Assembly (NCBI GenBank): GCA_022606425.2
Contig: JAHDVF020000589.1
Location: forward strand, 106,512 to 170,511
Direction: 5' to 3'
Source: Lepidostoma basale
Taxonomy: Eukaryota > Arthropoda > Insecta > Trichoptera > Lepidostomatidae
Length of the DNA stretch: 64,000 nt
Below are positions 5,815 through 62,114 of this stretch, piece after piece. The first letter of the stretch is position 1; each line of letters begins with the position of its first letter. The notes below the pieces were generated by a model. The model searched no databases. It saw nothing but the letters and a program-made list of their open reading frames with translations, and was not told the DNA's origin. Made by a program: the position numbers and the translations under genes.

Positions 5815-6385
5815 TTCTTCTGTGTTCGCCATACTTTGTGTTGTAGATGTTTTATTTGTCTTTTTATTTTTTTGTATACTTTGTAAATATAACACTAACT
5901 TAAAAAAAAATACATGTTAGACATGTTTCGGACAACCGGTCCTTCTTCAGTGATACATATTATAAAGATACACATTTAGTAATTATTAAAAAATTGTTTA
6001 CAAATATGATCAGTTTTGACAGATGTTATAAAAAATTATTTTGGAACGTTTATGCTTTTGTTATAGCAAATATTATGAATTGGGATTCAGGTAATTAATT
6101 ACAACAAAGTAAATAAATCAAAGATTGGACTTGACTTTAAATTTATTTGATTATTTATAATATTTTCTTTATTTTTAATTACTTTTTTAATTTCTAAAAT
6201 TTTGAGATTGCTCAAAGTTATATTACTATTATTAAAATGTAAAATTTCAACGCCATTATCTTTATTTTTTTCTAGACATAATATTTTAAATATGTATCTT
6301 TGTAATACTCGTATGTATCACTGAGGAAGGGCTGGTTGTCCGAAACATGTCTGATATATAATTTTATTTTTTTTAAAGTTCGTGT
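5815..6385. repeat. foldback element with inverted hammerhead-like motifs
   Basis: A minus-strand motif at 5920-5950 (CTGAAGA..GAAACATGTC) and a plus-strand motif at 6321-6351 (CTGAGGA..GAAACATGTC) face outward in inverted repeat. Outer sequence (GTGTTGTA, GTATACTTTG) is also mirrored. The second copy of this element is at 30090-30415. Confidence 0.75.
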
Positions 6386-6489
6386 TGTAAATAAGAAGTA
6401 TATAAAAAAGAAAAAGACAAACATAACAAATAATATACTTAGGAAATTGAAAATAACTTTGTTTAATCCAGAAAATATTAAAAAAACAC

Positions 6490-6520
6490 GACAGGTTTCG
6501 GAGGATACCTCCATCTTCAG
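6490..6520 (-). ncRNA. hammerhead-ribozyme-like motif
   Basis: The minus strand reads ACAC-CTGAAGA-T-GGAGG-TAT-CCTCC-GAAAC-CT-GTC-GTGT. It has the CUGANGA and GAAA cores, a perfect 5-bp helix II and a 4-bp helix I (ACAC/GTGT). Helix III would be the two pairs AC/GT, with cleavage expected after GTC. The T between CUGANGA and helix II is extra relative to the canonical form. Activity is inferred, not shown. Confidence 0.5.
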
Positions 6521-6549
6521 GTGTAAAAATATAATAAAAACAAATAACT

Positions 6550-7075
6550 AACCATCATGCCGCCTCCTCAAAAGGGTAGGCTGAAATAATATACCACCAT
6601 ACTGTTTTTTTCCTGACATACCTACTTTTCTCAATTCCTGTGCATATATCGTGTCATATACGTCCGTCGCTTTCTACCCCTCGTCGACTCCTCACTTGGC
6701 CGACATTTAATATTAGATTGATTTAATCGTGCCACGTTTTCTCCTCTCTCCTCGGTCTTCCTCTATTTATTTTTCCGTTTACGTCATTCACATATACGTT
6801 ATTTCTTCTATAATACTTTTCATATAACCAAACTATCTACATGACCCTTTCATTATTTTGTTCAGAATACTTTCATTTGCACTGTATTCACTTCTAATAT
6901 TTGCATTCTCTCATGAGATCTCATTTCTGCTACATTTATACTCGTAATATTGTCTTTCGAAATACTTTCGCCATTCTTTGCCCAGTTCCATGCTTTACTT
7001 CAATACATAAGGGTCGGTACACAAACATCATTGTACACCACCACTAGTAGACTTTGACACGAAGCCTTTACTTGG
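6550..7075 (-). mobile_element. LINE-A fragment
   Basis: AACTAACCATCATGCCGCCT is the inverted 3' end. It is followed by the reversed coding remnants of ...RWFGHMERM... and CCTTATGTATTGAAGTAAAG toward 7030. Many stops and frameshifts. Confidence 0.75.
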
Positions 7076-7129
7076 TGGTTTGACATATTTAAAAATAAAT
7101 ATAATAACATTTTCACTTAGTATTAACCA

Positions 7130-7660
7130 CTTTATTTGATAATTGATTCGAATGAAAATGGCAGTTTTCTAGAAGTTTGATTACATTTGATGGGAATGAT
7201 ATGTTTCGCCCTTCTAAGATATTATCAAATTATTGAATATGGAGTTTTACATCATTGTTCAAGAAACAATAAACACTTTATTCGAGTTAGTAGCGTCAAC
7301 TGGTCTCACTCTGTAGCGAGCTTTCTAAGGGCTATACACAAACTAAACTGTTTAATTTATTTATTGTTTCTTGAACAATGATGTAAAACTCCATATTAAA
7401 TAATTAATGCGAATGAAAACGTCAGTTTTCTAGAAGTTTTATTATATATTATGGGAATGACATGTTTTGCCCTCCTAAGACATTATCAAACACATTTGAT
7501 TGATGATGCCCGAGAATGGCAAAACATGTCATTCCCATAAAATATAATAAAACTTCTAGAAAACAGACGTTTTCATTCGTATAAATTAAACTGTTTTGAT
7601 TGTATATAGCCCTGAGGAAGCTCGTTACAGAATGAAATTGGTCGGCGTTACAAAGATTTG
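7130..7660. repeat. compound foldback of the TCTAGAAAACAGACG family
   Basis: Repeated blocks TCTAGAAAAC(A/T)GACG, ATGGAGTTTTACATCATTGT and GGCGAAACATGTCATTCCC occur in both orientations, forming nested hairpins. An outer pair carries GAGGAAGCTCG...ACTGGTC-type sequence (7290-7330 inverted, 7611-7645 direct). Relatives are at 27865-28100, 28380-29490, 57590-57785 and 63700-63830. Confidence 0.75.
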
Positions 7661-7689
7661 AATTTTATTTTTAACTATTTGGATAGGCT

Positions 7690-8895: not shown

Positions 8896-10110
8896 TCTTT
8901 TTCAAGTGCCCTGTCGGGTCCCCCCAACGTTGGCGATCACCTCGGCGAACCTGTCCCTGTCCTGCGCCGCTCGGAACAGCTCCTCCACACTTCGGATGCC
9001 GGTCCACTCCCTCACGTTTCGCAGCCAGGACATCTGTCTCCTACCGGGCCCTCGACGTCCCTCAATTTTCCCCTCCAATATCAGTTGGAGAAGGTGGTGC
9101 TTTTCCCCACGCAGTATATGACCCAGATGTGAGATCTTTCGAACCTTGATAGTTGATAACAATTCCCTGTCAACTCTAGCTCGCCTCAGGACTTCGGTAT
9201 TGGTAACCATGTCTGTCCAGGGAACTCTGAGCATTCGGCGATAGAGCCACATTTCAAATGCTTCCAGTCTGTTCATTGAGTTAACTTTCAGGGTCCAAGT
9301 TTCACACCCGTATAATAAAACAGACCACACATAACATTTGATCATTCTCTGGCGGAGTTTCAAGTTTACGTTATCATTGCAGAAGAGTGATTTCATTTTA
9401 TTAAACGAAGCTCTTGCTGCCTCAATTCTGCATTTTATCTCTACATCTGGCTCAAGAGATTGCGTTATTATGCTGCCGAGGTATTTAAATTTTTCCACCC
9501 TTTCAACGTTACGGCCGTTCAAATGCAATACTGAACCACTGTAGTCAAGCCGTCCGATTGTCATCAATTTAGTTTTGCTGACATTTCTTGTTGACCCCAA
9601 TCTTTCACCGGACTCGTCAACAAGACTAAGGAGGTCCTGAAGATCGCTGACACTTTCAGCTAATAAAACAGTGTCGTCGGCATATCTTATATTGTTTATC
9701 ATAACGCCATTCATTTTCAGTCCTTTCTCGGTGTTGATGAGGGCTCGTTTAAAAACATAGTCGGAGTAGAGATTAAATAATAATGGAGAAAGGATACAAC
9801 CCTGTCTCACACCTGTATTCCGCCGAACGATATCCTCTATTTCGCAAGTTTTTCTTATGTCTGCGTTGTGGACACGATCTCGAAGAGTTTTTTCAGTAAT
9901 TGATCTTAGGACCTTCGCTTCCTTGGTTCGCACAGTATTGGTCCTCGTCTCTACAGCGTACGTCATGAAAGGTCGCACGAATATCTTATAAATTCTGACC
10001 TTGCTGTCGATACGCATGTGCTTGTTCTTCCAGACCAGATTCTTCAGACACCCTGACACGGCAGAGGCTTTACTGACTTGTTCTCGTACTTCGGTATAAA
10101 GGTCATACAA
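8895..10110 (-). mobile_element. LINE-B retrotransposon with partial open reverse transcriptase (402 codons)
   Basis: This is the best-preserved RT fragment in the window. In the 402-residue minus-strand ORF, GVRQGCILSPLLFNLYSDYV is RT motif B and IRYADDTVLLAES carries the catalytic YADD. VEKFKYLGSIIT follows, then VLLYGCETWTLK, EAFEMWLYRRMLRVPWTD and the C-terminal HLGHILRGE...GRRGPGRRQMSWL. The organisation is that of RTE/CR1-like non-LTR elements. The N-terminal endonuclease and early RT blocks are missing, with VHNADIRKTCEIEDIVRR fused immediately upstream of motif B, so the copy is 5' truncated or rearranged and not autonomous. It ends in GAAGAAGAA. Confidence 0.88.
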
Positions 10111-10640
10111 AGGTCTGTATAATACTACGAGTTAACTAATCACGCCGTCAACTCAACACTTCGTTTCCCTCGGTCTTGCTATATTTCTTATTCCATTCAC
10201 ACTGTTAAGGAATACTTTCTTAAGCATTATTTCGTCATTTATTATTTCTATAATATCAAAATCAGCTTAATAAACCTTTTATTATTTTATTCATAACGCA
10301 TTATTCGTATTTTATACTAGTCTAACCTTGCTGTCGATACGCATGTGCTTGTTCTTCCAGACCAGATTCTTCAGACACCCTGACACGGCAGAGGCTTTAT
10401 TTAGGTACTTGTTCTCTTACTTCGGTATAAAGGTCATACAAAGGTCTGTACCTATAATACTACGAGTTAACTAACCATCACGCCGTCAACTCAACACTTC
10501 GTTTCCCCCACTCTTGCTGTATTTCTTGTTCCATTCACACTGTTAACTTTCTTAAGCATTCGTTCGTCATTTATTATTTCTATTATTAATAAATCTTTTA
10601 TTATTTTATTCATAACGCATTATTCGTATTTTATACTAGT
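9998..10640 (-). repeat. tandem duplication of a LINE-B/LINE-A junction (about 320 bp x 2)
   Basis: The block GACCTTGCTGTCGATACGCA through CGTATTTTATACTAGT at about 9998-10323 is repeated at about 10325-10640 with small indels. Each copy has LINE-B sequence followed by inverted LINE-A sequence (ATCACGCCGTCAACTCAACA). Confidence 0.85.
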
Positions 10641-25433: not shown

Positions 25434-25464
25434 TATATCTAAATGTGCAGGGGGGGAGTAAAGG

Positions 25465-26689: not shown

Positions 26690-26852
26690 TTGTAATGACG
26701 AATTTTTTATGAATAAACACTGTTTTTGTCTACTTTTGAGTTTATTTTTCTCGTGATATTTCGAAGGCTTTACGCCTTCATCATCGGGAAAATAAACTCA
26801 AAAGTGAAAAAAACAATCTTTTTAATTCATAAAAAATTCGTCGTTATGGAAT
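26690..26852. repeat. perfect-type foldback around a hammerhead-like motif
   Basis: The outer arms TAATGACGAATTTTTTATGA and TCATAAAAAATTCGTCGTTA are complementary, as are the inner arms CTTTTGAGTTTATTTTTC and AAAATAAACTCAAAAG. At the centre, the minus strand reads CCGATGA-T-GAAGGC-GTAAA-GCCTTC-GAAATATCAC. Confidence 0.8.
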
Positions 26853-27074
26853 TCCAGCGTTTAACATCTTAAGTTTATCTAAAAATAAATCGTGTTAATT
26901 TTATCGTACAATTGCAATAAAAACTTTTCTAACTAACATTTTTGATCAATTGTATAGCAATACAATCGTAGAAAAACTTTTCACATATTAATTCACCATC
27001 ACGCCGTATTCATAGATAGTTACAAAAATAGGATGGACCGCCACGCCATTTTTAGATTCACACTGCTTGTATCA

Positions 27075-27825: not shown

Positions 27826-27864
27826 TATGTACTTATAATTGTTATGGTGATATGAATCAGTTTA

Positions 27865-28110
27865 TTGTATCTTGAAAAATTATGTTAAACTCTATATTAA
27901 ATAATGAATACAAATGAAAACAGCACTTTTCTAGAAGTTTTTTTTAATAGTATTTGCTAATGACATGTTTCGCCAATCTAAAGCATTATCAAATGTAAAA
28001 AAATGATAATGCTTTAGACAGGCGAAACATTACATTCCATAAACTATAATAAAACTTCTAGAAAACAGACGTTTTAACGTATAAATTATATGAATTAGTA
28101 TTTCAATCAT
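27865..28110. repeat. foldback of the TCTAGAAAACAGACG family
   Basis: TTCTAGAAGTTT...ATGACATGTTTCGCC is mirrored by GGCGAAACATTACATTCC...AAACTTCTAGAAAACAGACG around TGATAATGCTTT. Confidence 0.75.
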
Positions 28111-29960: not shown

Positions 29961-30089
29961 TAATTCATCCTTCTTCTGCCGCTCTCATCCTTCTTCTGCC
30001 AGTTCCACAGGGCAAGGGGGATCACTTGACCGATAATATGCTCAAAGCTGTAAATTGTAATATTATTTTGAAATTGTAAAATTATATCT

Positions 30090-30415
30090 TCTATGTTCGC
30101 CATACTTTGTGTTGTAGATGTTTTATTTGTCTTTTTCTATTTTTTGTATACTTTGTATATACAACACTATTAAAATTACATATCAGACATGTTTCGGACA
30201 ACCAGTCCCTCTTCAGTGATACATATTATAAAGATACATCTTTCTAACATCTTACAAAATTGATCATATTTGTAAACAATTTTATAATATTTTAAATATG
30301 TATCTTTATTATATGTACCACTGAAGAAGGACTGGTTGTCCGAAACATGTCTGATATGTAATTTTAATAGTGTTGTATATACAAAGTATATAAAAAAAAG
30401 AAAAAGACATGTAAA
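30090..30415. repeat. foldback with inverted hammerhead-like motifs (second copy)
   Basis: The minus-strand motif 30186-30216 and plus-strand motif 30321-30351 read CTGAAGA(A/G)...GTCCGAAACATGTC. Mirrored flanks are CAGACATGTTTCGG and TATACTTTGTATATACAACA. It matches 5815-6385 but with a shorter centre. Confidence 0.82.
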
Positions 30416-33380: not shown

Positions 33381-34110
33381 AAAAAGAAGATGAAGATAAG
33401 ATTTTGTATTTGAGATATTTAAACCTGCGGGATTCTATTAATATGTTTAATGTGCCATAGTCCGGACGATTACTTCATTTAGAATTTAAAATATCAAAAC
33501 ATGATTACGCATTGTATTCTGTTTGAAAACATATTTGTAAATATTACCTGGCCAGTGCCGGCTGCTGCCACAATAGCTCGCGTCAGGGCGGGAGTAGCAG
33601 CCGCCCCGTTCCGCCCTCTGACGTCCGCCCTATCAAATAGTCATACAATACTAGCGGTTACCGTGCTCTGCTCTCGGCACCCGGTCACGGCTTCTGAATG
33701 GGACAAAATATACGTGAATAGCCAGTGTTATTATATTTAAAGCCATATTCGAATTAGCTAGTCAAAGGATGTTTGGTTAAGGTGAGAACTTGTGACGAAT
33801 GCATAGAACAACAAAAAAATCAAAATAATTATTTAAATACGACTAGTTTTATAAATATTCAAATACAGTTCTGAATTCTGATTTAAATTTTGTTATAATC
33901 AAAGATTGTATCCATTGTTTTGGCCAAAACACTACGATACTTCAACATTATTAACTGTTAAATTATAAAACTCTTCTCATGTATCACAATTATTAGGTAT
34001 ATTTAATTTTCGCGACAAATTTAACTTTTAATTAACTGTAATAAGGTACCTTACTCGACTCCAGCAATTACTTTAAAATAATATAAAAGAAATTAAACAA
34101 TTTTACATAG
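33381..34110. other. no recognised gene; GC-rich island at 33550-33710
   Basis: 33550-33710 is GC-rich without a supported exon. 33905-33945 (CCATTGTTTTGGCCAAAACA) is shared, inverted, with 62355-62390. Confidence 0.35.
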
Positions 34111-34114
34111 GAAT

Positions 34115-34425
34115 ATATAATGATGATGTAAGAAATGAATGTAATAAATAAAATCAAGAAAGGGTCACTAAGGTGGTTTGGACATATGGAACGAATGGAT
34201 GAGGGAAGAATGGTTAAAAAGATATATTCAAGTAGTGTGAATGGAAAAAGAAGTTGAGGAAGGCCAAGGAAGACATAGCATGACCAAATTAATCAATTAC
34301 TGAAAGGCGGCCAAGTTCGAAGTAGGAACAATCGACGAGCGTGCATGTCACGATGTTTGAATGTAGAAGAGGCGCGAGAGTTATGTCAAGAACAACGTGG
34401 CGATCCATCCTCTTGTTAGGCATAG
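34115..34425 (+). mobile_element. LINE-A fragment
   Basis: GGTGGTTTGGACATATGGAA (WFGHME) and the RRACMSRCLNVEEARE-type end, truncated before the (TTAG)n tail. Confidence 0.78.
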
Positions 34426-34496
34426 GAATAAATATACATAAAGGTTAAAAAAATAGCTAAATTTTTATTTTAACAGTTGATAAATTATTGTTACAC

Positions 34497-34532
34497 CTGA
34501 TGATGTCAACTGATGATGACGAAACAACTGTC
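34497..34532 (+). ncRNA. hammerhead-ribozyme-like motif
   Basis: ACAC-CTGATGA-T-GTCA...TGAC-GAAACAACTGTC. It has the canonical CUGAUGA and GAAA cores. Flanking sequence is shared with 62040-62160 (TTTAACAGT..., AAAATAAAAATTGTGATA). Catalysis is inferred only. Confidence 0.45.
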
Positions 34533-34599
34533 GCGGAAAATAAAAATTGTGATACATAAAAAGAGTTTTATAATTTAACACTTAATCAATAATTTTATC

Positions 34600-36310: not shown

Positions 36311-36324
36311 AGATTCGCCACATG

Positions 36325-38300: not shown

Positions 38301-38419
38301 ATTTCTTTACTACATCACAAAAATAATAATTCATTCTTTCCGCGTGTCATCTTAATGATAGCATTTTTTTGTTTAATTGATATAAAATTTCTTTATTATT
38401 TTAAATTTAGTGGGTACAA

Positions 38420-38530
38420 ACTTGTGTTTAACGTCGAACGGTTTCAGCAGCTTGCTGCCATCATCCGGTCAGACCAGAAGATGGCAGTAAGCTGCCTAAA
38501 CCGGTCGACGTTAAACACAAGTGGAAGCCC
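38420..38530. repeat. foldback with hammerhead-like motifs
   Basis: The arms ACGTCGAACGGTTTCAGCAG and its relative on the other strand (TAAACCGGTCGACGTTAAAC) are mirrored around GGTCAGACCAG. The stem hairpins are GGCAGCAAGCTGC and GGCAGTAAGCTGCC. Confidence 0.7.
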
Positions 38531-38554
38531 ATTAAATGCATAATAATAAAGAAT

Positions 38555-41150: not shown

Positions 41151-41371
41151 TAATAAGTCTTTCTTTGTTAAGAGTTCAGTTATATATTTACATCTGTGGA
41201 TGGAAGTCATCTCCGAAACATGTAGTGGCTAATATTTTTATTGTATAAAGATATTTAATAACTTATAGTGGAACATAAACAGCGTTGTTTTTCAATTCCA
41301 AGGTTGTTAATGTGGAATTCCAGAGTGTTAACGCCTTAACCTTTTTAGTTCAATTGTTGTGAGACATTTAA

Positions 41372-42072: not shown

Positions 42073-42076
42073 TTAA

Positions 42077-42480
42077 TTCATTCTCATTTCACATACATTT
42101 TATTGAAAATTTTCCCGTTGCATAAAATATTCTTCAGTACATTTATGCGTTGTTCTTAAAGTATTGATGTGAATATTTCCAAGACCTCTCATAAAAGATA
42201 ACATCTGTTCTGGTTTTATCTCCGTCCGAGGAAGTGGTAAGGCGTGTCATGCTGTATGCGATAGCCGGTAAAGTATGATGACTTCACTGTAATTTGGAGC
42301 AAAAGTAAACACGCAATCTTTACAAAGTGAACAAAATCTGGACCATGGTAGCAATGCGTTTATAAATTATAAAAAAGGGGCACAATGGAAGCATCTCTCC
42401 TCAGGCAGTTTCAAAACACGAGGTCTTTATCGACACATCTGTTCCAGCTTCCTTCACCGGTCCATATGAGAATTAACTAA
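42077..42480. other. no gene recognised
   Basis: Anonymous sequence. Confidence 0.35.
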
Positions 42481-46180: not shown

Positions 46181-46184
46181 TATT

Positions 46185-46386
46185 ATTATTATTAATTAAT
46201 AATTAAATAAAACGATGTTTTTTAACTACTTCCACTTTTGTCTTTATTTAGACAGCGACCGGTTTCGCCAGACTCGCTGGCATCGACAGACTGGTCTGTC
46301 GATGCCAGCGATTCTGGCGAAACCGGTCGCTGTCTAAATAAAGACAAAAGTGGAAGTAGTTAAAAAACATCGTTTTATTTAATTAT
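46185..46386. repeat. near-perfect palindrome (about 95-bp arms) with hammerhead-like motifs
   Basis: AAATAAAACGATGTTTTTTA...GACAGCGACCGGTTTCGCCA is mirrored by TGGCGAAACCGGTCGCTGTC...AACATCGTTTTATTTAATTA about the centre near 46287. Both arms contain CGATG-CCAG-CGA-CTGG-CGAAACCGGTC (46258-46286 minus, about 46299-46328 plus). A degenerate relative is at 54160-54345. Confidence 0.9.
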
Positions 46387-46519
46387 TATTTAAAATGAAC
46401 TTCCATCAAGAGATTTCAGTAAAATCATTTGAATATTATTTTTATTGTTGTAAAACTCAATCTTTCTCGAACTCTTTAACTACACATCAGAAACCTTTTC
46501 ATCAGATTAAAAATGAAGT

Positions 46520-46952
46520 GTTAACTAACTATCTAACCATCACGCCATTTCCCCGGAGAGGTAGGCAGAGAAGATTGCTCTGTCCTGACATACCTCTTAA
46601 GTTTCCTCTACATTCATACATTGTGACATGCCTTCATGTTACGTTACAGTGTGACGACTTTCGTGGCCGAGTGGTAAGTGGGTTGGCTGCCACCCTGAAG
46701 GTTCCGGGTTCGATTCCCGGCGAGGGCAGTGTGATTGTCACACTCTCTTTGGTCTGGTTTGGGATTCACGTGACAATAAAATGGCGATAGATTAGCTACC
46801 TATCACATGTCACGAGAATCACTATGATAGCTATAATATCATTTACATCGATTTGGCTCATGCTGTCATGATGTAAAGAGCGATTCAACAAAATAAAATG
46901 AAAAAATAAAATAAAAAAATGAAAATGCAAAGTCGTCGATTTCTTCGACGAA
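46520..46952 (-). mobile_element. LINE-A fragment split by SINE-1
   Basis: The inverted LINE-A 3' end (CCATCACGCCATTTCCCCGG) stops near 46650 and appears to resume at about 46925 (GTCGTCGATTTCTTCGACG). Confidence 0.65.
46654..46917 (+). mobile_element. SINE-1, complete copy
   Basis: Box A-like TGGCCGAGTGGTAAG at 46664 and box B GGTTCGATTCC at 46707-46717 show tRNA derivation. The body GTCACACTCTCTTTGGTCTG...AAAATGGCGATAGATTAGCT follows, then the LINE-F-type end TTTACATCGATTTGGCTCAT...ATGATGTAAAGAGCG and an A/T-rich tail. The tRNA acceptor stem does not close, so this is not a functional tRNA gene. Confidence 0.88.
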
Positions 46953-53900: not shown

Positions 53901-56900
53901 AAACGACTTCTGTGAGCACAGGACCAGTGGAAGGAGGCGAAGAAATTGAGGCGGTTTATCGCGCATTGCAGGTGCGGTCAGGGCCGGCGGTGCGAGGACT
54001 TGCGGTGTATCAGAGAGGCTGCCGTTTCCCCACTGAGGAGATCTCAGCCACCATACCGGTAAATCTCAAAATATTAATATTGTTACGAGTAATTGAAATT
54101 TCATGGCACAATTAAATCATAAATATTATTTGAAAAAAATCATTTTAACATATATTTAAATAATAATTAAATAAAATAATCGATGTTTTTTAAAATACTT
54201 CCAGTTTTGTATTTATTTCGACAGCGACCGGTTCGATTCGACAGTCACTAGTCTGTCGATGCCAGCGAGCCTGGCGAAACCGGTCGCTGTCGAAATAAAG
54301 ACAAAAATGAATGTATTATAGTTTTAAAAACATCGTTTCATTTCATTTTTCTTTAACATTAAGAGATTTCAGTAAAATCATTCGATTATATATATTTACT
54401 TTTATTCTATTTTTTTATAAATTTAAACACTTTTTTAAACTTTATCTTATTTTTCTCGACACGTTTCGTAGGCTTTACACGTTCATCGTCGGGAGAGCGA
54501 TATTAATTTTAATTTTAAATGTTTTAATTGATTTTAAAACAGTACACACATATAGATTTTTTTGTAACTAAGCTATTTACATATTTTTTTTTTTTAAACG
54601 ACCAACATCAAGGATTTACATCAATGATATTAGAATTTATATTACAATCTTCAATGTGAGCAGAAAATAGCTCATTATTATGAAGAAGGAATCTGGTCGT
54701 GTCCAGGCTTGAACCCATGTCCCCTGGATCAGGAGCCAAGCGTTCTATCCCCTAGACCACCACCCGGTCCCGGTTTAATTTAAATAGTTATTATGAGTAC
54801 AAATCATAACGATCATTGCGCTATTCTGTTTACGACAGCAAAACAATAATACAAGATAGCGCAAAATGACTTATATTCTTGAGCTTCGTTAAAACATTTT
54901 TTGTTTCAACAATAATAATCAAAGGAAATTTATTTTAATAAAGCATGTAGTGTAACTAATAATAAAGTTGTTAATTAAGAATTATTTTGCATCTCTTTCA
55001 GGCCTACAGCAATGCCCTATGCCAGATAGATTGCAGGAGCAGGATGTCTCAGGTTTTCTGTGGCTGTCGACCGTTTTTCTACATCGTTGGCAGTAAGTAA
55101 CTCATGAATGAAATTAATGTTTTATACAATAAAATGAATTTTCTTCTCGAGTCGTGTTAACGGGCAGGGATACTGATCACTACCCATACTACAGAGTAAT
55201 AATGTAATTTTATATATATGAAGCGGAACAAGTGCCGAGAAACTGCGAGTGACCCAAAGAACCATGGAAAATGCAATGTTAGGTATAAGCCTAAGAGACA
55301 GAGTCAGAAACGATACGGTGAGAGAAAGAACAAGGGTCACTGACATCATCCACCGGGTTGCGACTCTAAAATGGCAATGGGCGGGTCACGTAGCCAGAAG
55401 CTCAGATGAAAAGTGGACAAGAAGACTGCTGACTTGGAGACCGTGGACGACAAAAAGAAGTGCAGGGCGGCCGCAACTACGGTGGAAGAATGACCTGAAC
55501 AGACACGTCGGAATAACCTAGATGCAGTCTGCACAGGACAGAGTAACATGGAAGCGAATGGAGGAGGCCTTTGTCCAGGAGTGGACGGGAATAGCCTGAG
55601 GAAAAAGAAGAAGAAGAAAAAGCGGAGCAAAGAGAGGGTTAAATGTAGATTAAATGATATCTGGGATCCCTCATGCTTTGCTTACAATTTTTAAATTCAA
55701 AATCGATAATCGAATGGCCAAATTTGCCCTAACGAGCTAAAAAAATTGGTCACTACTGAATTTTACTAACCGGAAATCTCTGATGAGCTAAAAAAGGAAA
55801 GGTCGCCGCCGAATTCTATTACCGGAAGTCTCGATCACCTGATCTAATTGAAGAAAAAGGAGAAGAATTATTTTCTAGTGGTGAAATGACCCCTATAGAT
55901 GTAGCAGTTCCGTTTGTTGTTTTTTAGAGTTTTTGTTGTTGTGACATTCAGATGGCAAGGCGTGTGATGCAGCCGGAATGGCCTGCCTTGGCCGCAGTAT
56001 GGAGATCCTGGTGAATCTGCCAACCAACTTAGCCCGCTGCCAGTGCGTGCCGCAGTGCACTGAGATCAACTATGTGCCGTACGACCAGCGCACCAATGTC
56101 TGGTAACTGGTACACTCAAAATTCCAAATGATTGCTGTACACTCCCGATTTTCTGGACACTAGAGTCATTGAAAAAATATTTTGTAAAAACAAAAATATT
56201 TTACAATAGTACTTATAATGCAAACAAAATCTCAAATCTGACACAATGACATTGGGCGTTTAGTTCACATTTGCGCCACCGCTAACATACGTTTGTGGCT
56301 CTATAGTCGTGTCATAAAGTTTTGAGTTTGCAATAAAGCACCCGCAGCGTAGTTCATACTCATAAAACATGTCGTTAATTTTATTTTGCCTTGAAAAGTG
56401 TCTATAATAATGAATAAACGCGAACGAGTCGTACTTTTAAAAGTTTGAATGTTGCAACCGTTAAATATTTATTGAACCACCAGTTAAAAACTGTGACGCT
56501 GTCAACACGTGCGGCATACATAAACGCGTATGGCGCAGTTTAAAATTTCTCTTTGTTTGCATATTTTTAATGTTTTCGGATTAATCGGGAAATCGATTAT
56601 ACGGGATTTTTTTTTCACCATCTATCCCGGAAAATCGAAAGTGTACTGTATTCCAAAAAACAAACAGTTTTCACGAAAGATTTTTTACAATTTGTATCAT
56701 TGAAGCACGGTAATTTTCTTTTTCAGTTATACTAATTTATTTCGTTTTTTCATAGATATTTGGTGTTATATTTTGAAAAATAAAAAATATGTTTTGTTTT
56801 AAAATATTATTAAAAAAAGTATTTACTTTAATTTATGATAAACATTAGAAGTTAATGATGTGGAATTCCATAATTTTAATGTTATTGATCTTAAAATAAA

Positions 56901-59023
56901 AGATAAAACATAACGTTTTTCTCGACATGTTTCAAAGACAATATACCAATATCATCGAAGATATTATATTATATAATATATCTCAATTATAAATGAAGTT
57001 TATATCTCTTCAATATTCGTCATCAATTTGTATTGTGGTTTCATATTTGAATAACACTGTGTTTTAACAAAACTTATTGCACTTTCATAAACATTTTTCT
57101 GTTTACGCAGTTTAAAAGTTTACACTGAGTGTTTGAAACTGAAACATGTTTGTGAAAAGGGCAAGAAGTAGGAATCAAAACATTTTAATTAATGTTATTA
57201 ATTTATTTAATATACTGTTTATTTGTCAGGAACTCGTCTCATCATACAATATTCGATAGAAGGGCATCAGTCCGCCTTGCCCTTCAGATGCCGAAAGTCC
57301 TGATGCACAAAGATGTCATCTTTACCTTTGAAGATCTCATTGGTAAGTACATATTTTCATACAATTTTTTTAGATACGTTCGCAAAAGTAACGTTAATGG
57401 TGAAATTGCGATATAAATTGGATAAATGTTATATAAAAATATGTAAACAAAGGAAGCGATTGTTATCGTTAGCAAAAGTCTATCTAAAAAAGCTAAGACA
57501 GCAGTGCACAATCGCATTGTCTATTTGTACTTATCTTTATATAGTAGAAGAAACATGGAACTGCTAAGAGAGGGATGAAAATAGTTTGTAGTTTCTTGAG
57601 CGATTATGTAAAACTCCATATTAAATAATTAAAACGAATGAAAGCGTCGTTTTCTAGAAGTTTTATTATAATTTATAGGAATAGCAGGTTTCGCCTTTCG
57701 AAAGCTTAGAAAGGCGAAACATGCCATTTCCATAAATCATAATAAAACAGACGTTTTCATTCGTGTTAATTTAAAAAATACTTAATCGCTGTATTTGCTG
57801 ATATCGGTCCCTTTTTACTAATAAGTTTGCCGATCTCTGAATTAAAATTATCAAATCAAATCAGTTTATAACTCAACAGACATTACGAACAGCATAAATG
57901 TTTAAGGCAAATATTGAGTACGGGTAAAATATTAAATATATACAACAAGACGACCTGCGTGGCCGAGTGGTAGTGCATTGACTGCCACCCCGAAGGTTCC
58001 GGGTTCGATTCCCGGCGAGGCAGTGTGATTGTCACACTGTCTTTGGTCTGGTGTAGAATTCACGTGCAAATAAAATGGCGATAGATTAGCTACCTATCAC
58101 ATATCACGAGAATCACTATGATAGCTATAATACCCTTTACATCGATTTGGCCCATGCTATCATGATGTAAAGAGCGATTAAACAAAATAATAATAAGAAT
58201 AATAATACCAGGAACGCATGAGAGATGGTTCGACACTAGGAAGACAAGATACTCTCTAAAGTCATGAGTATGTCTTCTGAACGTACTTCCACTAACATGA
58301 ATAGTTGTGTATACTTATGAATGTAACATGTGTCTCAAAAGAAAGTTTATATTTAGTTGATAGATTAAATAAAAGTAAGCCGCTTATCGAAAAAAATGTT
58401 TATTGATTACCAAAATACACAATTTGGGATATTATTCCTTAAAAATAATATCGTCCAAATGTATTACAAACCTTCGCGTTCGTGACACTCATTTTGTCGA
58501 ACAGAAAAAGTTCTTATTATACCATTTTGTGGCGAATATTTTCTTTCAAACGCGTCAGGGAAGTCGATTTATTGGCGTAAAATTTATTAAAAGTCCATAG
58601 GGGTTAAATCAGGACTGCGTGGAGGCCAATTCATGTCACCTCTCCTGGAGATTAATTTTCCAGGGAAAATATCACAAAATCGTGGCAGAGACGTATTGGA
58701 CGTGTGTGACGTTGCTCCTTCCCACTGAAACCATATTCTTTGGTTAAAACCAGGAGAGTTTTGCAATTCAGGCACCAAGTAGTCGTCTAACATCTGAAAA
58801 TAACATATTATTGAACGATATAAACTATATTTGGAGACACGTTGTATGATATCAATGTTATAAGGAAGTCTATTTGTTTTCAGGTTCCTTCGGAGGAGTA
58901 AGCGCCCTATGTCTTGGAGTCAGTACTATCTCGTTTGTAGAGATACTGTTCTGTATTTCGAGACCCCTGTTTCGAATGTTCACAAAAACCAGGCAAAATC
59001 TTGTACCGGATTTTACCAATTAA
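47707..59023 (+). CDS. pickpocket-type DEG/ENaC sodium channel subunit, nine exons
   Basis: This gene encodes an amiloride-sensitive-type Na+ channel subunit of the plasma membrane; pickpocket channels act in insect mechano-, chemo- or osmosensation, and I cannot say which paralogue this is. Exons: 47707-47914, 49923-50123, 51437-51712, 53015-53159, 53870-54058, 55002-55092, 55952-56102, 57230-57342, 58884-59023. All introns are GT-AG and every junction keeps frame, giving about 503 residues, the usual family length. Counting from the first full codon, the gating HG is at 54-55, TM1 about 70-88 and FPALTVC 114-120. Then come GICRTFNS, YQRGCRFPTE, a Cys-rich block (CQIDC, CGCRPFF, CQCVPQC) and TM2 about 458-480 with LGVS carrying the Gly-x-Ser filter. 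A TAA stop ends it. No in-frame ATG precedes codon 34, so a 5' exon is probably missing. No AATAAA is seen just after the stop. Introns contain many transposon copies. Confidence 0.93.
47960..48050 (-). mobile_element. LINE-A 3' end
   Basis: ACTAACTAATTAATCATTAC and the GGGTAGGCAGAAATAATAGA signature. In intron 1 of the channel gene. Confidence 0.65.
48080..48235. repeat. (AAT)n / (TTA)n and T-rich low complexity
   Basis: Runs of AAT, TTA and poly(T). It explains an apparent Asn/Lys-rich ORF on the minus strand. Confidence 0.9.
48255..48955 (+). mobile_element. LINE-A, longest copy (RT C-terminal part to 3' end)
   Basis: The + strand reads LEQVYEFVYLSSMLTNDGRV, then ERRVVAGKKVNGALKVV, LLPTLMYGSEA, a stop, VEMRSLRRMC, SLRWFGHMERMN and RRACMTRWMNVEEAREICQE. 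It ends GGAGACGGTGTGATGGTTA. It sits in intron 1 of the channel gene in the same orientation. Stops and frameshifts make it inactive. Confidence 0.85.
48957..49197 (-). mobile_element. SINE-1 copy
   Basis: The inverted 3' end AAATCGATGTAAAGGGT, the body TAGCTAATCTGTCGCCATTT, and box B/A (CGGAATCGAACCCGGAACCT, CACTCGGCCACGAAGGTCGT). Its 3' end CATTACAGCGCAAGCC matches LINE-F exactly. In intron 1. Confidence 0.85.
49370..49801. mobile_element. pogo-like non-autonomous element, TA-flanked
   Basis: Inverted ends CAGTAGAGTCTC and GAGACTCTACTG are flanked by TA. Subterminal GGTCGGATAA repeats face each other. No transposase ORF. In intron 1 of the channel gene. Confidence 0.82.
49923..50123 (+). 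CDS. ppk-like channel, exon 2 (TM1 and FPALTVC)
   Basis: AG|G at 49922 completes the Arg split from exon 1. The exon encodes the hydrophobic TM1 (VFWSLAVLSAIVGAILL) and the post-TM1 FPALTVC motif, then ends AA|GTAATA. It is much more GC-rich than the flanking intron. Confidence 0.93.
   Translation, partial: GVLVSCGLICNSGSHTPGSHSVGALPNQPYRRLHQEGLPRVVHYLSRPHRLSHGSRRLEQGGGIHL
50205..50700. mobile_element. inverted-repeat transposon relic with LINE-C insertion
   Basis: GTGTCTAAAACGAAAGTTTA (about 50213) resembles TGTCTCAAAAGAAAGTTTAT at 50664 and 58331. TTATAAATCGGAATTCATGA at 50336 is the complement of TCATGGATTCCGATTTATAA near 50639. An inverted LINE-C 3' end lies between them at 50430-50590. 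In intron 2. Confidence 0.5.
51000..51240 (-). mobile_element. LINE-H-like fragment
   Basis: The minus strand reads LGRPPTTWMPTVKNDLKVLG and DRETWRSRIRKADPK, then a tail. In intron 2. Confidence 0.7.
51437..51712 (+). CDS. ppk-like channel, exon 3 (ectodomain)
   Basis: The acceptor TTATAG and donor AG|GTATAC bound an open segment that joins exon 2 as ...FIYK|TWNVTKD. It encodes the finger/knuckle region and ends with PVMTEMGICRTFNS, equivalent to the family G-x-C-x-x-FN motif. Confidence 0.92.
51938..52164 (+). repeat. 113-bp tandem duplication
   Basis: GGACACACTCAAGATCTCAG...AGATACCATGAAAATA occurs twice back to back with a few substitutions. In intron 3 of the channel gene. Confidence 0.92.
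53015..53159 (+). CDS. ppk-like channel, exon 4 (ectodomain)
   Basis: The acceptor TTGCAG and donor ACA|GTAAGT bound a 145-bp exon. The first base completes an Arg from exon 3 (AG+A), then YQSVETWKLQQDDPG... and ending NSTGT. It contains two Cys (SCPYMGKQC). Confidence 0.88.
53212..53420 (-). mobile_element. LINE-A fragment
   Basis: CTCCGATTCCTCACATGGCC and TTTGATTGTGCCACGTTTTT. In intron 4. Confidence 0.7.
53445..53830 (-). mobile_element. LINE-C fragment
   Basis: The inverted 3' end CAGACGATCTGTGACACAGA and coding remnants through CGATCTCGGGGAGTTTTTCC. In intron 4, ending about 40 bp before exon 5. Confidence 0.75.
53870..54058 (+). CDS. ppk-like channel, exon 5 (ectodomain)
   Basis: The acceptor CTTTTAG and donor CCG|GTAAAT bound 63 whole codons. 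It encodes YYVHSPWELAE and the conserved YQRGCRFPTEE signature that precedes the thumb-domain cysteines. Confidence 0.93.
54160..54345. repeat. foldback related to 46185-46386
   Basis: The right arm CGATGCCAGCGAGCCTGGCG AAACCGGTC (54256-54285) is intact. The left arm GACAGCGACCGGTTCGATTC is truncated. In intron 5. Confidence 0.75.
54458..54491 (-). ncRNA. hammerhead-ribozyme-like motif
   Basis: The minus strand reads CTCTCC-CGACGA...GTAAA...CGAAACGTGTC-GAGA. TCTC/GAGA could form helix I and ACGTGT helix III. Helix II is imperfect. In intron 5, antisense to the channel gene. Confidence 0.4.
54588..54772 (-). mobile_element. SINE-2 copy
   Basis: The minus strand reads GGTGGTGGTCTAGGGGATAG (box A) and GGGTTCAAGCC (box B), then a tail of A/T. 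Nearly identical to 19481-19690, suggesting recent activity. In intron 5. Confidence 0.85.
55002..55092 (+). CDS. ppk-like channel, exon 6 (Cys-rich thumb)
   Basis: The acceptor CTTTCAG and donor A|GTAAGT bound this exon. It encodes AYSNALCQIDC...VFCGCRPFFYIVG, the typical C-x(3)-C...CGC-x-P-x-F cluster. Confidence 0.93.
55212..55620 (+). mobile_element. LINE-D (HmRTE-like) fragment, open for 90 codons
   Basis: RTMENAMLGISLRDRVRNDT, RVTDIIHRVATLKWQWAGHV and RPQLRWKNDLNRHVGIT, followed by a stop and the 3' end with (GAA)n. In intron 6, same orientation as the gene. Confidence 0.85.
55952..56102 (+). CDS. ppk-like channel, exon 7 (Cys-rich thumb)
   Basis: The acceptor ATTCAG and donor TG|GTAACT bound this exon. 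It encodes NGKACDAAGMACLGRS and ARCQCVPQCTEINY, the second half of the cysteine array. The split Trp codon (TG|G) joins it to exon 8. Confidence 0.93.
56135..56648. mobile_element. pogo-like non-autonomous element
   Basis: The left end CTGTACACTCCCGATTTTCT is the inverted partner of the right end AAAATCGAAAGTGTACTG, followed by TA. The left TA is degraded. In intron 7. Confidence 0.65.
56924..56957 (-). ncRNA. hammerhead-like motif
   Basis: The minus strand reads CGATGA-T-ATTGG...GTCTTT-GAAACATGTC-GAGAAAA. The stem is weak. In intron 7. Confidence 0.35.
57230..57342 (+). CDS. ppk-like channel, exon 8 (pre-TM2 palm)
   Basis: The acceptor TTGTCAG and donor TG|GTAAGT bound this exon. It encodes the membrane-proximal palm, ending FTFEDLIG, which leads directly into the G-x-FGG of TM2 in exon 9. 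Confidence 0.88.
57590..57785. repeat. foldback of the TCTAGAAAACAGACG family
   Basis: TTCTAGAAGTTTTATTATAA...TTTCGCCTTTCGAAAGC is mirrored by GGCGAAACATGCCATTTCC. In intron 8. Confidence 0.75.
57852..58305 (-). mobile_element. LINE-E 3' end interrupted by SINE-1
   Basis: CAAATCAAATCAGTTTATAA...GTAAAATATTAAATATA stops at about 57945 and continues at 58207 (CCAGGAACGCATGAGAGATG). In intron 8. Confidence 0.8.
57949..58205 (+). mobile_element. SINE-1, complete copy
   Basis: Box A GTGGCCGAGTGGTAG and box B GGTTCGATTCC, then the body, the LINE-F-like end TTTACATCGATTTGGCCCAT and an (AAT)n tail. Inserted in LINE-E. Confidence 0.88.
58331..58793 (-). mobile_element. IS630/mariner-superfamily transposase remnant
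   Basis: The minus-strand ORF 58587-58793 reads LDDYLVPELQNSPGFNQRIW, FQWEGATSHTSNTSLPRFCD and INWPPRSPDLTPMDF-like sequence. WPPRSPDLTPMDF holds one catalytic Asp. The preceding WFQxDGAT-type motif is WFQWEGAT, with Glu in place of Asp. A terminus-like TGTCTCAAAAGAAAGTTTAT lies at 58331. In intron 8, antisense. Confidence 0.72.
58884..59023 (+). CDS. ppk-like channel, exon 9 (TM2 and C-terminus)
   Basis: The acceptor GTTTTCAG opens the exon and a TAA stop closes it. It encodes SFGGVSALCLGVSTISFVEILF, the family TM2 with its Gly-x-Ser selectivity filter (GVS) and the conserved Glu, then a short cytoplasmic tail ending DFTN. Confidence 0.94.
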
Positions 59024-59565: not shown

Positions 59566-59639
59566 CCAACCTTCCTCCATCGGCGGAGTTCCAATGTTAA
59601 TTTGAATAATTTCTTTGATAGCAAAGATCAAATCCTTGG

Positions 59640-59910
59640 CAACATGCAGCCGCGGCAGTCTCTTTAATGTCGTTCTTCCATCGTAGTCACAGTGACAGTT
59701 CTATGACGCCAGCAAAAAAGGCGTTTTGTCCATCTACCGTCAGAACTGCGAACAACATGGCTTTCCCAGCGCCATTTTAGCTCTGTCACTCTTCCGATGA
59801 TGTCCGACACTCCTGTTCTGGCTCTAATAATGGTTTTTCTTCCACTGATCGCTATACTGATACAAAAACATTGCTCTTTCCATAGCTCTTTGGAAATACC
59901 AATATACATG
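59640..59910 (-). mobile_element. LINE-D fragment
   Basis: RTGVSDIIGRVTELKWRWES, HVVRSSDGRWTKRLFCWR. Confidence 0.75.
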
Positions 59911-60079
59911 GCTTACACAGTGTCAACGGATAGATTCGCGCGTTATTTACAATGCATAGTTTTTAGATGAAAAGCAGTGAAATCATTTATGTAAATAACA
60001 TACTTTTCATTTTTTCATAACATGTGAATAATATACTTTTTAAATAAATTGTTAGAATTATGTACAAGAATAAACTTTC

Positions 60080-60562
60080 AACAAATCAAATCAAATCGGT
60101 TTATTTCATCAATAGACAATACAAAATTAATTTTAAGGCATCTATTGAAAACAGGTAAAATAATATATTGTGGATAGCATACTACCAGAAACGCATGAGA
60201 GATGGTTCGACCATAGGAAGTCAAGATACTCTCCATAATTAAGAGAATTTGCCTTCTGAACGTAATTTCACTAATATGAACGACGTTGATCTCCGAGGAG
60301 ACCGCGTTCAGCAGATTAATTGCTCTTCCCACCGGTGTCACCAGAGGCAGGTTGGTTCTGGCGGCCGGTAGTTACAACAATCTATGCTGTCACTGTCGGA
60401 GATATCTATCAGGGACAAAAATCCGAACACCATCCAGCACGGCCGAGTTTTTGAAATATCCCCTGAGTAATCTAAAGAAATGGGTTATGAGATGCCCATC
60501 TCTTCGAAGCTGCAGACAGTTGGTTCCAAGGATTCCCAAAAGAATTGCCGTGGGATAGAGCC
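60080..60562 (-). mobile_element. LINE-E C-terminus and 3' UTR
   Basis: The minus strand reads FFRLLRGYFKNSAVLDGVRI, FVPDRYLRQ, PVGRAINLLNAVSSEINVVH, then the 3' UTR with the inverted (TTTGA)n tail at 60085. The best LINE-E copy here. Confidence 0.8.
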
Positions 60563-60998
60563 AGTTTAAATGAGGTAGAGATGAGGTCCCTACGACGTAT
60601 GTGTGGTAGAACGATGTACGACAGAATCTCAAATGCTGATATTAGAAAGGAATGTAGAGCGAAATAAGGTATTATGAACAAAATTATGAAAGGATCGCTG
60701 CGTTGGTTCGGACATATGGAACGCATGGGTAAAGAAAGAATAGTTAAAAAAAGTATACGTTAACGATGTAAATGGAGGACGGAGTCGAGGTAGACCGAGG
60801 AAAACATGGCATATGACCAAATAATCCAATTTTAATGGTTGGTCATGTCGTTGGTCGTTAGAAGCCGGAAGAATCGTCGTGCGTGTATGACTTGCTGTAT
60901 GAATGTGGAGGAAGCTAGAAATGTAGGTCAGGATAGAGTAGTGTGGCGGTACATTCTTTCTGCCTACCCCTGCGAGGAAACGGCGTGATGGTTTCTTG
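60563..60998 (+). mobile_element. LINE-A fragment
   Basis: RCGRTMYDRISNADIRKECR-type sequence, GSLRWFGHMERMGKERIVKK and RRACMTCCMNVEEARNVG, ending GGAAACGGCGTGATGG. Confidence 0.8.
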
Positions 60999-60999
60999 T

Positions 61000-62038
61000 T
61001 GTTCTTTTTGAGCCAGTTTACACCGAGCCTGTTAAAAGGTAAATTAATACCCATCCCGCAAACATTGTCTTATAGCGATATTTTTGATCAGGTAATGTTT
61101 TTTAAACTCTTTCACAGCTTCCGACAGATATTACATATAAATATGTAGGTATACGCCATAGGCCAATTATTTGGTACTTACGCTGCTGACAGACCTGGGC
61201 ACGTACCCAAGTAAACATAAAAACAAGGCCTTCATTAAGTTGTATCACTGTGTTGAAACAAGATTATGAATGAACGCTTTTTACCTAAGGTGCCGCGAGG
61301 TGAGACACGCCAGCCGCACTTTTTATTAGCAGGGCATTCATGAAATTACCTACAGTAGGTACCTGTACTTTCATTAGGACGCGTACAGCATGTTACTTGT
61401 CTTGTAATGTCCTCAGCATGTCACCGAAGTAGTTATATAAGCTTACACTTGAAATACAAATACTCGTAATCTGTAATATGCATTCGATTATTTAAATATA
61501 AATTCATGTTTTTTCTTCTATGTTTACCTTAACTTTGTGGCAGGGCATTTTTTATTTATTTTTTCATAAGGAACATAGAAGTTTCCGCCACATACCCGAG
61601 GCTGTTATAGGGCGCAGCGGCGCTCTTTTGTCAGCCTCGCTCGTACACTCCTGGACCTGTCCCCGGTCCATCCGGGACTTACATTTAAAGACGGCAACAA
61701 CAAGGGGGTGCCAGACCACATTTAATTTACCCCATCTTACTTCTATGCTCCGCTGTACAGGAGAATACCAACGTTGAAGAGACCTGACACCTAAACAAAA
61801 AGAAGAATGGTCTTAAGACCCTGGTATAAATTAACCACGTATACAGCCGGATAAACCAGATCAATCAAGACTTCGTGCACTTCGAGACCGCAAGGAGCAA
61901 GACCTCTATGTAGACCTAGAAAGATTTTTGTTCTGGTTAATGTGACTAAGGGAATATTGGAGACTTTAAAGTCAAACAAAATAGGTTATTACCGCTAAAA
62001 TTTAAAACACTGTTATAATATCAAAATTTCTTTTTATT
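61000..62038. other. no recognised gene
   Basis: 61545-61790 looks like an old repeat or pseudogene (CGCCACATACCCGAGGCTGT, GTCCCCGGTCCATCCGGGAC) that I cannot assign. The rest is anonymous. Confidence 0.3.
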
Positions 62039-62078
62039 TAAAACTCAGTTTTTAATTATTATTTTTTTATTGTAACAC

Positions 62079-62114
62079 CCGATGATGCCAACATCGGTTG
62101 GCGAAACAGCTGTC
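62079..62114 (+). ncRNA. hammerhead-ribozyme-like motif
   Basis: CCGATGA-T-GCCAAC-ATCG-GTTGGC-GAAACAGCTGTC. It has a perfect 6-bp helix II and a palindromic ACAGCTGT for helix III. U4 is C. Flanks match 34440-34575. Confidence 0.5.

What the first reader, a model, noticed from the sequence alone, without database searches (positions are those of the whole stretch)
5920..62114. Dispersed hammerhead-ribozyme-like motifs with palindromic helix III
Seen: at least a dozen sites on both strands share C(T/C)GANGA, one extra base, a hairpin, then GAAAC-NN(NN)-GTC. Clear sites are 5920-5950(-), 6321-6351(+), 6490-6520(-), 30186-30216(-), 30321-30351(+), 34497-34532(+), 46258-46286(-), 46299-46328(+), 54256-54285(+), 54458-54491(-), 56924-56957(-) and 62079-62114(+). 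The stem changes in sequence but stays paired (GGAGG/CCTCC, GCCAAC/GTTGGC, CCAG/CTGG), which is covariation. ACATGT, ACCGGT and ACAGCTGT are palindromes. Known: type I hammerheads need CUGANGA, GAAA and cleavage after GUC, and Penelope-like elements carry versions with a tiny, often palindromic helix III that can act as dimers. Inference: these are related ribozymes or their relics. The extra base before helix II, and the partial core at 46 and 54 kb, are departures from the canonical form.
Basis: partly seen in the sequence, partly recalled or inferred. Interest (0 to 1): 0.8.

Follow-up and report, generated by a model that had tools for sequence, protein, structure and literature searches.

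The report
Ribozyme-carrying palindromic mini-retroelements of Penelope type
This stretch of an animal-type genome holds many short non-coding jumping elements that carry a stripped-down hammerhead ribozyme and look like mirror-image insertions of the kind made by Penelope retrotransposons, which makes the ribozyme a usable landmark for how such elements are copied.

Summary
The motifs are real. Ten sites fit a hammerhead descriptor (core with at most 1 mismatch, stem II of at least 4 bp, GAAAC, GTH). All ten have exactly one extra base after A9; shuffles average 0.16 sites. Stems I and II covary across nine sites. Rfam hammerhead models find none.

In 10 of 11 elements examined exactly one arm has a 3' extension; 5 of 11 have 8-12 bp AT-rich target-site duplications. 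In those five (three families) the extended arm ends 99-105 nt past the predicted cleavage site, the short arm 54-69 nt. This is the published anatomy of Penelope-like insertions (PMC3846280, PMC11167929). I conclude: non-autonomous Penelope-type mini-elements with minimal type I hammerheads. The ribozyme kind is known; the extra base (U in 8 of 9 aligned sites, making A9-U-G an AUG in 7), the fixed distances and the non-coding form look like variants. Cleavage is untested, many copies are relics, and no Penelope ORF was found.

The parts
5816..6419 (.). Family A element 1: head-to-head palindromic mini-element, two outward hammerheads, tail on the left arm
   Evidence: arms end 104 and 68 nt from the cut sites (ends by homology with element 2); only a candidate 7 bp TSD seen by eye, none beyond control
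5920..5950 (-). hammerhead motif A1L (CTGAAGA+A, stem GGAC/GTCC, GAAACATGTC)
6321..6351 (+). hammerhead motif A1R
6490..6520 (-). hammerhead motif B (CTGAAGA+T, stem GGAGG/CCTCC, stem I ACAC/GTGT); not in a palindrome
7354..7586 (.). Family I element: palindrome with 10 bp TSD TAAACTGTTT (7344-7353 / 7587-7596), tail on left arm
7492..7538 (+). hammerhead-like motif I (TTGATGA+T: C3 replaced by U; GAAA replaced by AAAA)
7451..7497 (-). hammerhead-like motif in the other arm of the family I element (weak score, supported by its place)
   Evidence: E 0.0044
26693..26892 (.). Family H element: palindrome whose centre is one hammerhead with a very long stem I; right arm has the tail shared with 56.9 and 41.2 kb; right end approximate
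26745..26795 (-). hammerhead motif H (CCGATGA+T, stem GAAGGC/GCCTTC), best model score in the window; helix III degenerate
27858..28087 (.). Family I element with 8 bp TSD ATATGAAT (27850-27857 / 28088-28095), tail on left arm
30087..30409 (.). Family A element 2: head-to-head palindrome, 12 bp TSD TGTAAAATTATA (30075-30086 / 30410-30421), tail on left arm
30186..30216 (-). hammerhead motif A2L; extra base G; stem I of 9 bp
30321..30351 (+). hammerhead motif A2R
33911..34586 (.). Family C element: inverted arms (33950-33995 / 34541-34586), tail on left arm, another repeat between the arms; ends by homology
34497..34532 (+). hammerhead motif C (CTGATGA+T, stem GTCA/TGAC)
38389..38553 (.). Family J palindrome with hammerhead-like motifs at 38467-38514(+) and 38425-38475(-); tail not assessed
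41186..41232 (+). hammerhead-like motif related to B (CTGTGGA+T), followed by the tail seen at 26.8 and 56.9 kb
46188..46431 (.). Family E element 1: near-perfect palindrome, 9 bp TSD AATATTATT (46179-46187 / 46432-46440), tail on right arm
46257..46289 (-). hammerhead-like motif E1L (CTGTCGA+T)
46296..46328 (+). hammerhead-like motif E1R (CTGTCGA+T)
54159..54389 (.). Family E element 2 (E3): 9 bp TSD ATATATTTA (54150-54158 / 54390-54398), tail on right arm; left arm lacks the hammerhead core
54253..54285 (+). hammerhead-like motif E3R
54458..54491 (-). hammerhead relic F (CCGACGA+T, stem II broken)
56924..56957 (-). hammerhead relic G (TCGATGA+T), followed by the H-type tail
57585..57771 (.). 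Family I palindrome, tail on left arm, no TSD found; arms end 98 and 46 nt from the cut-equivalent positions (ends by homology)
61986..62383 (.). Family D element: inverted arms (61986-62038 / 62130-62186), tail on right arm interrupted by a later insertion at about 62188-62345
62079..62114 (+). hammerhead motif D (CCGATGA+T, stem GCCAAC/GTTGGC, helix III ACAGCTGT); a rival hairpin CCGATG/CATCGG is predicted to dominate in the monomer

Best explanation
These are minimal type I hammerhead ribozymes of the Penelope kind, carried by several families of short non-coding elements (about 230-680 bp, later insertions included) that were inserted by a Penelope-type reverse transcriptase acting in trans. 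Proposed mechanism (inferred): a short RNA running through the hammerhead into about 100 nt of downstream sequence is bound by the enzyme; AT-rich DNA is cut on both strands; each cut strand primes reverse transcription at one of two internal sites lying about 55-70 or about 100-105 nt downstream of the ribozyme's cleavage position; the two cDNAs meet head to head. The result is a palindrome with outward-facing ribozymes, a tail on one arm and an 8-12 bp target-site duplication. The ribozyme would cut the transcript after GUC, possibly as a dimer through its small, often palindromic helix III, to trim the 5' end of the RNA or separate tandem units. Shown here: motif, covariation, palindromes, one-sided tail, duplications, fixed distances. 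Inferred: the Penelope enzyme, the cleavage, its role.
For: Motif far above chance. Covariation in stems I and II; slid partners give at most 0.201 against 0.562. One-sided 3' tail in 10 of 11 elements examined (A1, A2, C, D, E1, E3, H; three of four family I palindromes). TSD of 8-12 bp in 5 of 11 (random same-spacing pairs reached that length in 4-44 of 2000 draws; 12-25 of 2000 in the wider first tests of A2, E1, E3 and I7.4); 44 of these 48 TSD bases are A or T. Extended arm ends 99, 103, 104, 105, 104 nt and short arm 58, 69, 67, 56, 54 nt past the cut site in the five TSD-bounded elements A2, E1, E3, I7.4, I27.9; by homology ends A1 104/68, C 103/54, I57.6 98/46; unextended arms of I29.3 56 and 64, of H 60. 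Literature: PMC3846280, passages read (head-to-head inverted pLTRs, 31 bp tail at one inverted pLTR, 8-10 bp TSD, palindromic junctions); PMC8969392, passages (inverted pLTRs, short 3' extensions); PMC11167929, main-text section read (both strands cut and extended, RT starts 111-118 nt into the ORF, ribozyme cut 26 nt into the ORF, hence 85-92 nt apart by my subtraction, tail = 30-40 nt between two RT start sites); PMC7761336, passages (thousands of minimal type I hammerheads dispersed in animal genomes). From A9 to the cut is 25-30 nt in the nine aligned sites.
Against: No Penelope RT or GIY-YIG motif was found by pattern in six frames (strict patterns written from memory, one doubtful match at 33602-). 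Of 10 ORFs sent to Pfam (of 22 of at least 120 aa), one matches an RT (RVT_1, 8902-10131), which I read as LINE-like. Six of 11 elements show no TSD beyond control level (A1, C, D, H, I29.3, I57.6). I had seen candidate TSDs by eye before setting the boundaries for the tests, so the controls are optimistic. Element I29.3 has no tail; further family I pieces were not delimited. The whole-genome search did not complete, so copy number and an autonomous partner are unknown. As full transcripts A1, A2 and E1 are predicted to have no stem II pairing; D and E1 do not form it as shorter transcripts either.
Confidence: 0.82

Rival explanations
1. MITE-type DNA transposons whose terminal inverted repeats happen to carry a hammerhead-like hairpin; moved by a transposase.
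For: Inverted-repeat arms flanked by duplications; the window does carry mariner-like sequence (Pfam HTH_48 at 25150-25518).
Against: One end extends beyond the inverted repeat by 34-52 nt in the eight elements measured; duplication length differs within family I (10 and 8 bp); RNA-style covariation of two stems around a conserved unpaired core.
Confidence: 0.08
2. Retrozyme-type elements: short tandem repeats with type I hammerheads that spread as circular RNA.
For: Non-coding, low GC, type I hammerhead, palindromic helix III as in animal retrozymes (PMC7229834, passages).
Against: No head-to-tail pair of one family within 1 kb among the 20 model matches with E below 0.01 (A1L and B share a strand 0.57 kb apart but are different families); the pairs found are head to head. 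Animal retrozymes are described as tandem repeats of about 150-450 bp.
Confidence: 0.07
3. Structural relics only: ribozyme descended from Penelope pLTRs, now inert sequence that spread passively inside palindromes.
For: Broken stem II in F and G, C3 lost in family I, rival fold in D, stem II absent in three of five full-length transcripts folded.
Against: B, A2L and H fold to stems I plus II as short single transcripts, though in B the predicted fold also pairs part of the core; compensatory changes persist between families. Selection within a family was not tested.
Confidence: 0.35
4. Chance hairpins in AT-rich repetitive DNA.
For: Several sites are copies of one family, which inflates the count.
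Against: 10 observed against a shuffle mean of 0.16; families A, B, C/D, E and F/G/H share no flank with each other at E 1e-3 apart from neighbours that lie in each other's flanks and the B-like core at 41.2 kb.
Confidence: 0.01

Closest known systems
Minimal type I hammerheads of Penelope-like elements (Cervera and De la Pena 2014; Lunse, Weinberg and Breaker 2017; both not held, seen only as citations and through passages of PMC7761336 and PMC6466107)
   Same: Type I layout, tiny helix III, dispersed in non-coding animal DNA, proposed action as dimers
   Different: Here one extra base follows A9 at every one of the ten descriptor sites; whether the published consensus has it could not be checked. 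Rfam's hammerhead models miss these sites
Poseidon of Anolis carolinensis, PAc (PMC11167929, main-text section read)
   Same: Hammerhead at the start of the ORF region, cut 26 nt after the start codon (25-30 nt from A9 here), RT start 85-92 nt past the cut, two RT starts 30-40 nt apart, both strands primed
   Different: PAc is a full coding element; the elements here are short and non-coding. PAc ribozyme cleavage needed the protein; not tested here
Bdelloid Penelope elements Pen1-Pen6 (PMC3846280, passages read)
   Same: Head-to-head inverted pLTRs, tail on one inverted pLTR, 8-10 bp TSD, palindromic junctions
   Different: The full bdelloid copies described flank an ORF or captured DNA; here only the pLTR-like part remains. 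The main text does not mention hammerheads (0 occurrences)
Plus hammerhead of chrysanthemum chlorotic mottle viroid (PMC3705267, passage read)
   Same: One extra base between A9 and G10.1
   Different: The viroid has A; here it is U outside family A. In the viroid ribozyme A10 to U raised trans-cleavage 3-4-fold
Animal retrozymes (PMC7229834, passages read)
   Same: Small non-coding type I hammerhead elements, weak palindromic helix III in some
   Different: Retrozymes are head-to-tail repeats; these are head-to-head palindromes

Membership tests
Hammerhead ribozyme, type I | Core CUGANGA ... GAAA ... UH with the right topology | tested here: met
   7 exact (U or C allowed at position 4) and 3 one-mismatch sites; relics F, G and family I depart further
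Hammerhead ribozyme, type I | Stem II closes directly on A9 (canonical core without insertion) | tested here: not met
   All ten sites have one extra base
Hammerhead ribozyme, type I | Stems I and II paired, with covariation | tested here: met
   stem I 77.8%, stem II 86.1% of cells paired; changes on both sides in 7 of 9 pairs
Hammerhead ribozyme, type I | Match to Rfam hammerhead models | tested here: not met
   No hammerhead family up to E 5 in the window or E 10 in three narrow stretches round sites B, D and H; no positive control was run
Hammerhead ribozyme, type I | Self-cleavage after the H17 position | not testable with these tools
   Needs an in vitro assay
Penelope-like element | Telomerase-like RT and GIY-YIG endonuclease ORF | tested here: not met
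   No convincing motif in six frames by strict pattern; the elements are non-coding
Penelope-like element | pLTR units, also inverted and head to head | tested here: met
Penelope-like element | Optional 3' tail on one inverted pLTR | tested here: met
   10 of 11 elements
Penelope-like element | TSD of variable length, about 8-12 bp, AT-rich target | tested here: met
   5 of 11 elements; 6 of 11 show none that beats the control
Retrozyme | Head-to-tail repeats flanked by hammerheads | tested here: not met
   No head-to-tail pair of one family within 1 kb among 20 model matches; head-to-head pairs seen
MITE | Both termini are the inverted repeat, fixed TSD length | tested here: not met
   One-sided tail; TSD 8 and 10 bp within family I

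The most novel reading that the evidence does not exclude
The hammerhead is the measuring point of a two-position reverse-transcription start: in three non-coding families with target-site duplications (and a fourth by homology) the cDNA ends sit 99-105 and 54-69 nt past the ribozyme's cleavage position, one of each per insertion, so each palindrome records an ordered double priming in which the two strands use different start sites. The extra base is the U of an AUG (A9-U-G10.1) inherited from an ORF start embedded in the ribozyme, so ribozyme and start codon share nucleotides. The elements form a SINE-like, ribozyme-anchored class parasitic on Penelope enzymes.
Probability: 0.4. Interest if true: 0.62.

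Novelty: new variant of a known kind. Interest (0 to 1): 0.45.

Why it matters
The role of hammerheads in Penelope-like elements is described as unknown (PMC7761336, passage). If ribozyme position fixes the two reverse-transcription starts, genomic palindromes become a fossil record of the integration reaction that can be tested in any genome that has them. It would also mean that searches with models lacking the extra base undercount such sites.

Tried and rejected
Chance: rejected by shuffles. Rfam identification: no hammerhead hit; weak microRNA and sRNA hits (MIR7723, STnc400, MIR841, mir-548, Phe_leader, MIR7533) fall on the palindromes and, I judge, reflect their hairpins. Relatives elsewhere: one pattern in viral contigs gave 0; a looser one gave 50 stretches, of which 8 have some stem of 4 bp or more, only one of them (L045) with one extra base, in a 28-nt insert, judged chance; one in prokaryote genome contigs gave 4, none with a convincing stem by eye. 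The covariance model on 10 of those 50 viral loci gave a best E of 0.0025 (L009); these loci were preselected for the core letters, so this is no clean background, but it shows that window matches near E 0.002-0.004 (38425, 7451) do not stand on score alone. DNA-transposon and retrozyme readings: see rivals. Dimer folding: cofold energies were lower than two monomers in all five cases tried (B, C, D, A2L, H), but I did not establish a double-hammerhead fold in any, so I give it little weight. Inverted arms that start near the ribozyme cut site (H, C) looked suggestive, but E3 and D do not agree; dropped. Papers: Cervera 2014, Lunse 2017 and Craig 2021 are not held, so the extra base could not be checked against them. 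Statements that something was not seen in print rest on the nine searches, of whose hits I read passages of a few and saw most as listings only.


Full report
OBSERVATION. The window is 64,000 bases at 36.6% G+C and is rich in dispersed repeats with a reverse transcriptase fragment (Pfam RVT_1, 8902-10131) and a mariner-type HTH (25150-25518), so I take it to be animal-type genomic DNA; the organism was not identified. An exact descriptor (CYGANGA, 0-1 extra base, stem of at least 4 bp, GAAAC, N2-4, GTH) finds 7 sites, all with one extra base, and none in 100 dinucleotide shuffles. Allowing one core mismatch and 0-2 extra bases gives 10 sites, again all with one extra base, against shuffle means of 0.03, 0.035 and 0.095 for 0, 1 and 2 extra bases in 200 shuffles.

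COVARIATION. Nine representatives (A2R, B, C, D, E1R, F, G, H, I7R) were aligned, chosen by me as one per family or lineage, relics F and G included; family J and the 41.2 kb site were found later and are not in it. On a structure of three stem I pairs, four stem II pairs and two helix III pairs, 84.0% of cells pair against 62.6% in shuffles; 7 of 9 pairs have changes on both sides; covariation score 0.562 against 0.220 with 0 of 500 shuffles as high; slid partners give at most 0.201. The two helix III pairs show no alternative pair type and so say nothing. The number of further pair types (15 against 11.9, reached by 47 of 500 shuffles) is not outstanding. C and D share flanks, and F, G and H in part, so the nine rows are not fully independent.

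MORE SITES. A covariance model of these nine finds 27 matches up to E 1 in the window, unfiltered; 20 have E below 0.01. Nine are its own training sites; five further copies of families A and E score E 1.5e-8 to 5.4e-7; new are 41186(+) at 7.3e-6, 38467(+) at 1.2e-4, and family I copies 27954(-) at 1.2e-4 and 28995(-) at 4.7e-4. 38425(-) at 0.0023 and 7451(-) at 0.0044 score no better than a control match in preselected viral sequence (0.0025) and are kept only because they are the opposite arms of palindromes. The seven matches above E 0.01 I regard as noise.

ANATOMY. Reading each arm outward, the two arms are homologous and face outward, and one arm runs on for a further stretch that is shared with the corresponding arm of other copies. 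This tail is on one arm only in A1, A2, C, D, E1, E3 and H and in three of the four family I palindromes I delimited (7.4, 27.9, 57.6 kb; I29.3 has none). J was not assessed, and further family I pieces (about 7133-7273, 28355-28476, 28893-29121, 29115-29296, 63736-63824) were not delimited. Target-site duplications: A2 12 bp, I7.4 10 bp, E1 9 bp, E3 9 bp, I27.9 8 bp; random pairs of window positions with the same spacing reached these lengths in 13, 4, 15, 9 and 44 of 2000 draws; with a wider search the figures were 13 (A2), 22 (E1), 25 (E3) and 12 (I7.4). I had seen candidates by eye before setting the boundaries, so these controls are optimistic. A1, C, D, H, I29.3 and I57.6 gave nothing I would rely on (A1 101 and C 98 of 2000; A1 47 of 2000 for an 8 bp word).

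THE RULER. Measured from the last base of GUC to the TSD-bounded element end in A2, E1, E3, I7.4 and I27.9, the tailed arm is 99, 103, 104, 105 and 104 nt and the short arm 58, 69, 67, 56 and 54 nt (E3's short arm from its GTC equivalent). With ends set by homology: A1 104 and 68, C 103 and 54, I57.6 98 and 46, the two unextended arms of I29.3 56 and 64, the unextended arm of H 60. D gives about 101-111 nt for the tailed arm after setting aside a later insertion with uncertain edges. Copies within a family share ends by descent, so the independent count is three families with TSDs (A, E, I) and a fourth (C) by homology.

COMPARISON. Penelope insertions in a rotifer are described with head-to-head inverted pLTRs, a 31 bp tail on one of them, 8-10 bp TSDs and palindromes at the junction (PMC3846280, passages). 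For the anole element PAc, both DNA strands are cut and extended, RT starts 111-118 nt into the ORF, the ribozyme cut lies 26 nt into the ORF, and the tail is the 30-40 nt between two RT starts (PMC11167929, main-text section). The distances here (about 100-105 and 55-70; difference 34-52) sit on either side of PAc's 85-92. The 25-30 nt from A9 to the cut is like PAc's 26 nt from start codon to cut; the extra base is U in eight of nine aligned sites, and seven of nine read A9-U-G as AUG. That the extra base is a leftover of an overlapping start codon is inference; PAc's letters were not seen.

FUNCTION. As short transcripts B, A2L and H fold to stems I and II, B with part of the core also paired; D prefers a rival hairpin. 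As longer pieces starting 25 nt upstream of the core, A1R, A2R and E3R form stem II with probability of about 0.9 and E1R with 0.0. As full-length elements A1, A2 and E1 have stem II probability 0.0, D 0.12 and E3 0.96 or more, so the intact palindromes could act only if transcription starts inside. PAc's ribozyme cleaved only with protein and its cleavage was not needed for insertion in vitro. I therefore judge RNA trimming by the ribozyme to be plausible but unproven, and many copies here to be relics.

NOVELTY. Dispersed minimal type I hammerheads, some in Penelope pLTRs, are known in the thousands (PMC7761336, passages), and an extra base at this position is known from a viroid, where U is the favourable letter (PMC3705267, passage). 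In the nine searches I saw no paper that describes ribozyme-anchored non-coding palindromic Penelope elements or the two fixed distances, but the two key hammerhead papers are not held and most hits were seen as listings, so this is a weak negative.

Noticed in passing
534-620 (+): Type-P1 twister ribozyme match (RF03160, 31.4 bits, E 2.6e-5 in a 201-base scan; below the gathering score of 67.2) with the conserved segments present; could be a second ribozyme class in this window, perhaps of a retrotransposon 5' end.
   Followed up: partly
46657-46728 (+), related to 36584-36737: tRNA-Gly(GCC)-like sequence inside a repeat present twice in inverted orientation; a tRNA-derived SINE is likely.
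   Followed up: no
41366-42077 and 4755-5005: Two further large palindromes (712 and 251 bp spans) in which model R1 found no hammerhead-like motif up to E 1; nature unknown.
   Followed up: no
41.2, 26.8 and 56.9 kb: A tail with GGAATTCCA and a following TTAAC stretch is shared by otherwise different hammerhead copies and may be the enzyme's recognition or start site.
   Followed up: partly
62188-62345: A later insertion flanked by repeated GTAATAATGTT-like bases splits the tail of element D.
   Followed up: no
8902-10131 (-), 35812-36363 (-), 36941-37348 (+), 63279-63677 (-): Related LINE-like reverse transcriptase fragments; only the first reaches a Pfam RT match.
   Followed up: no
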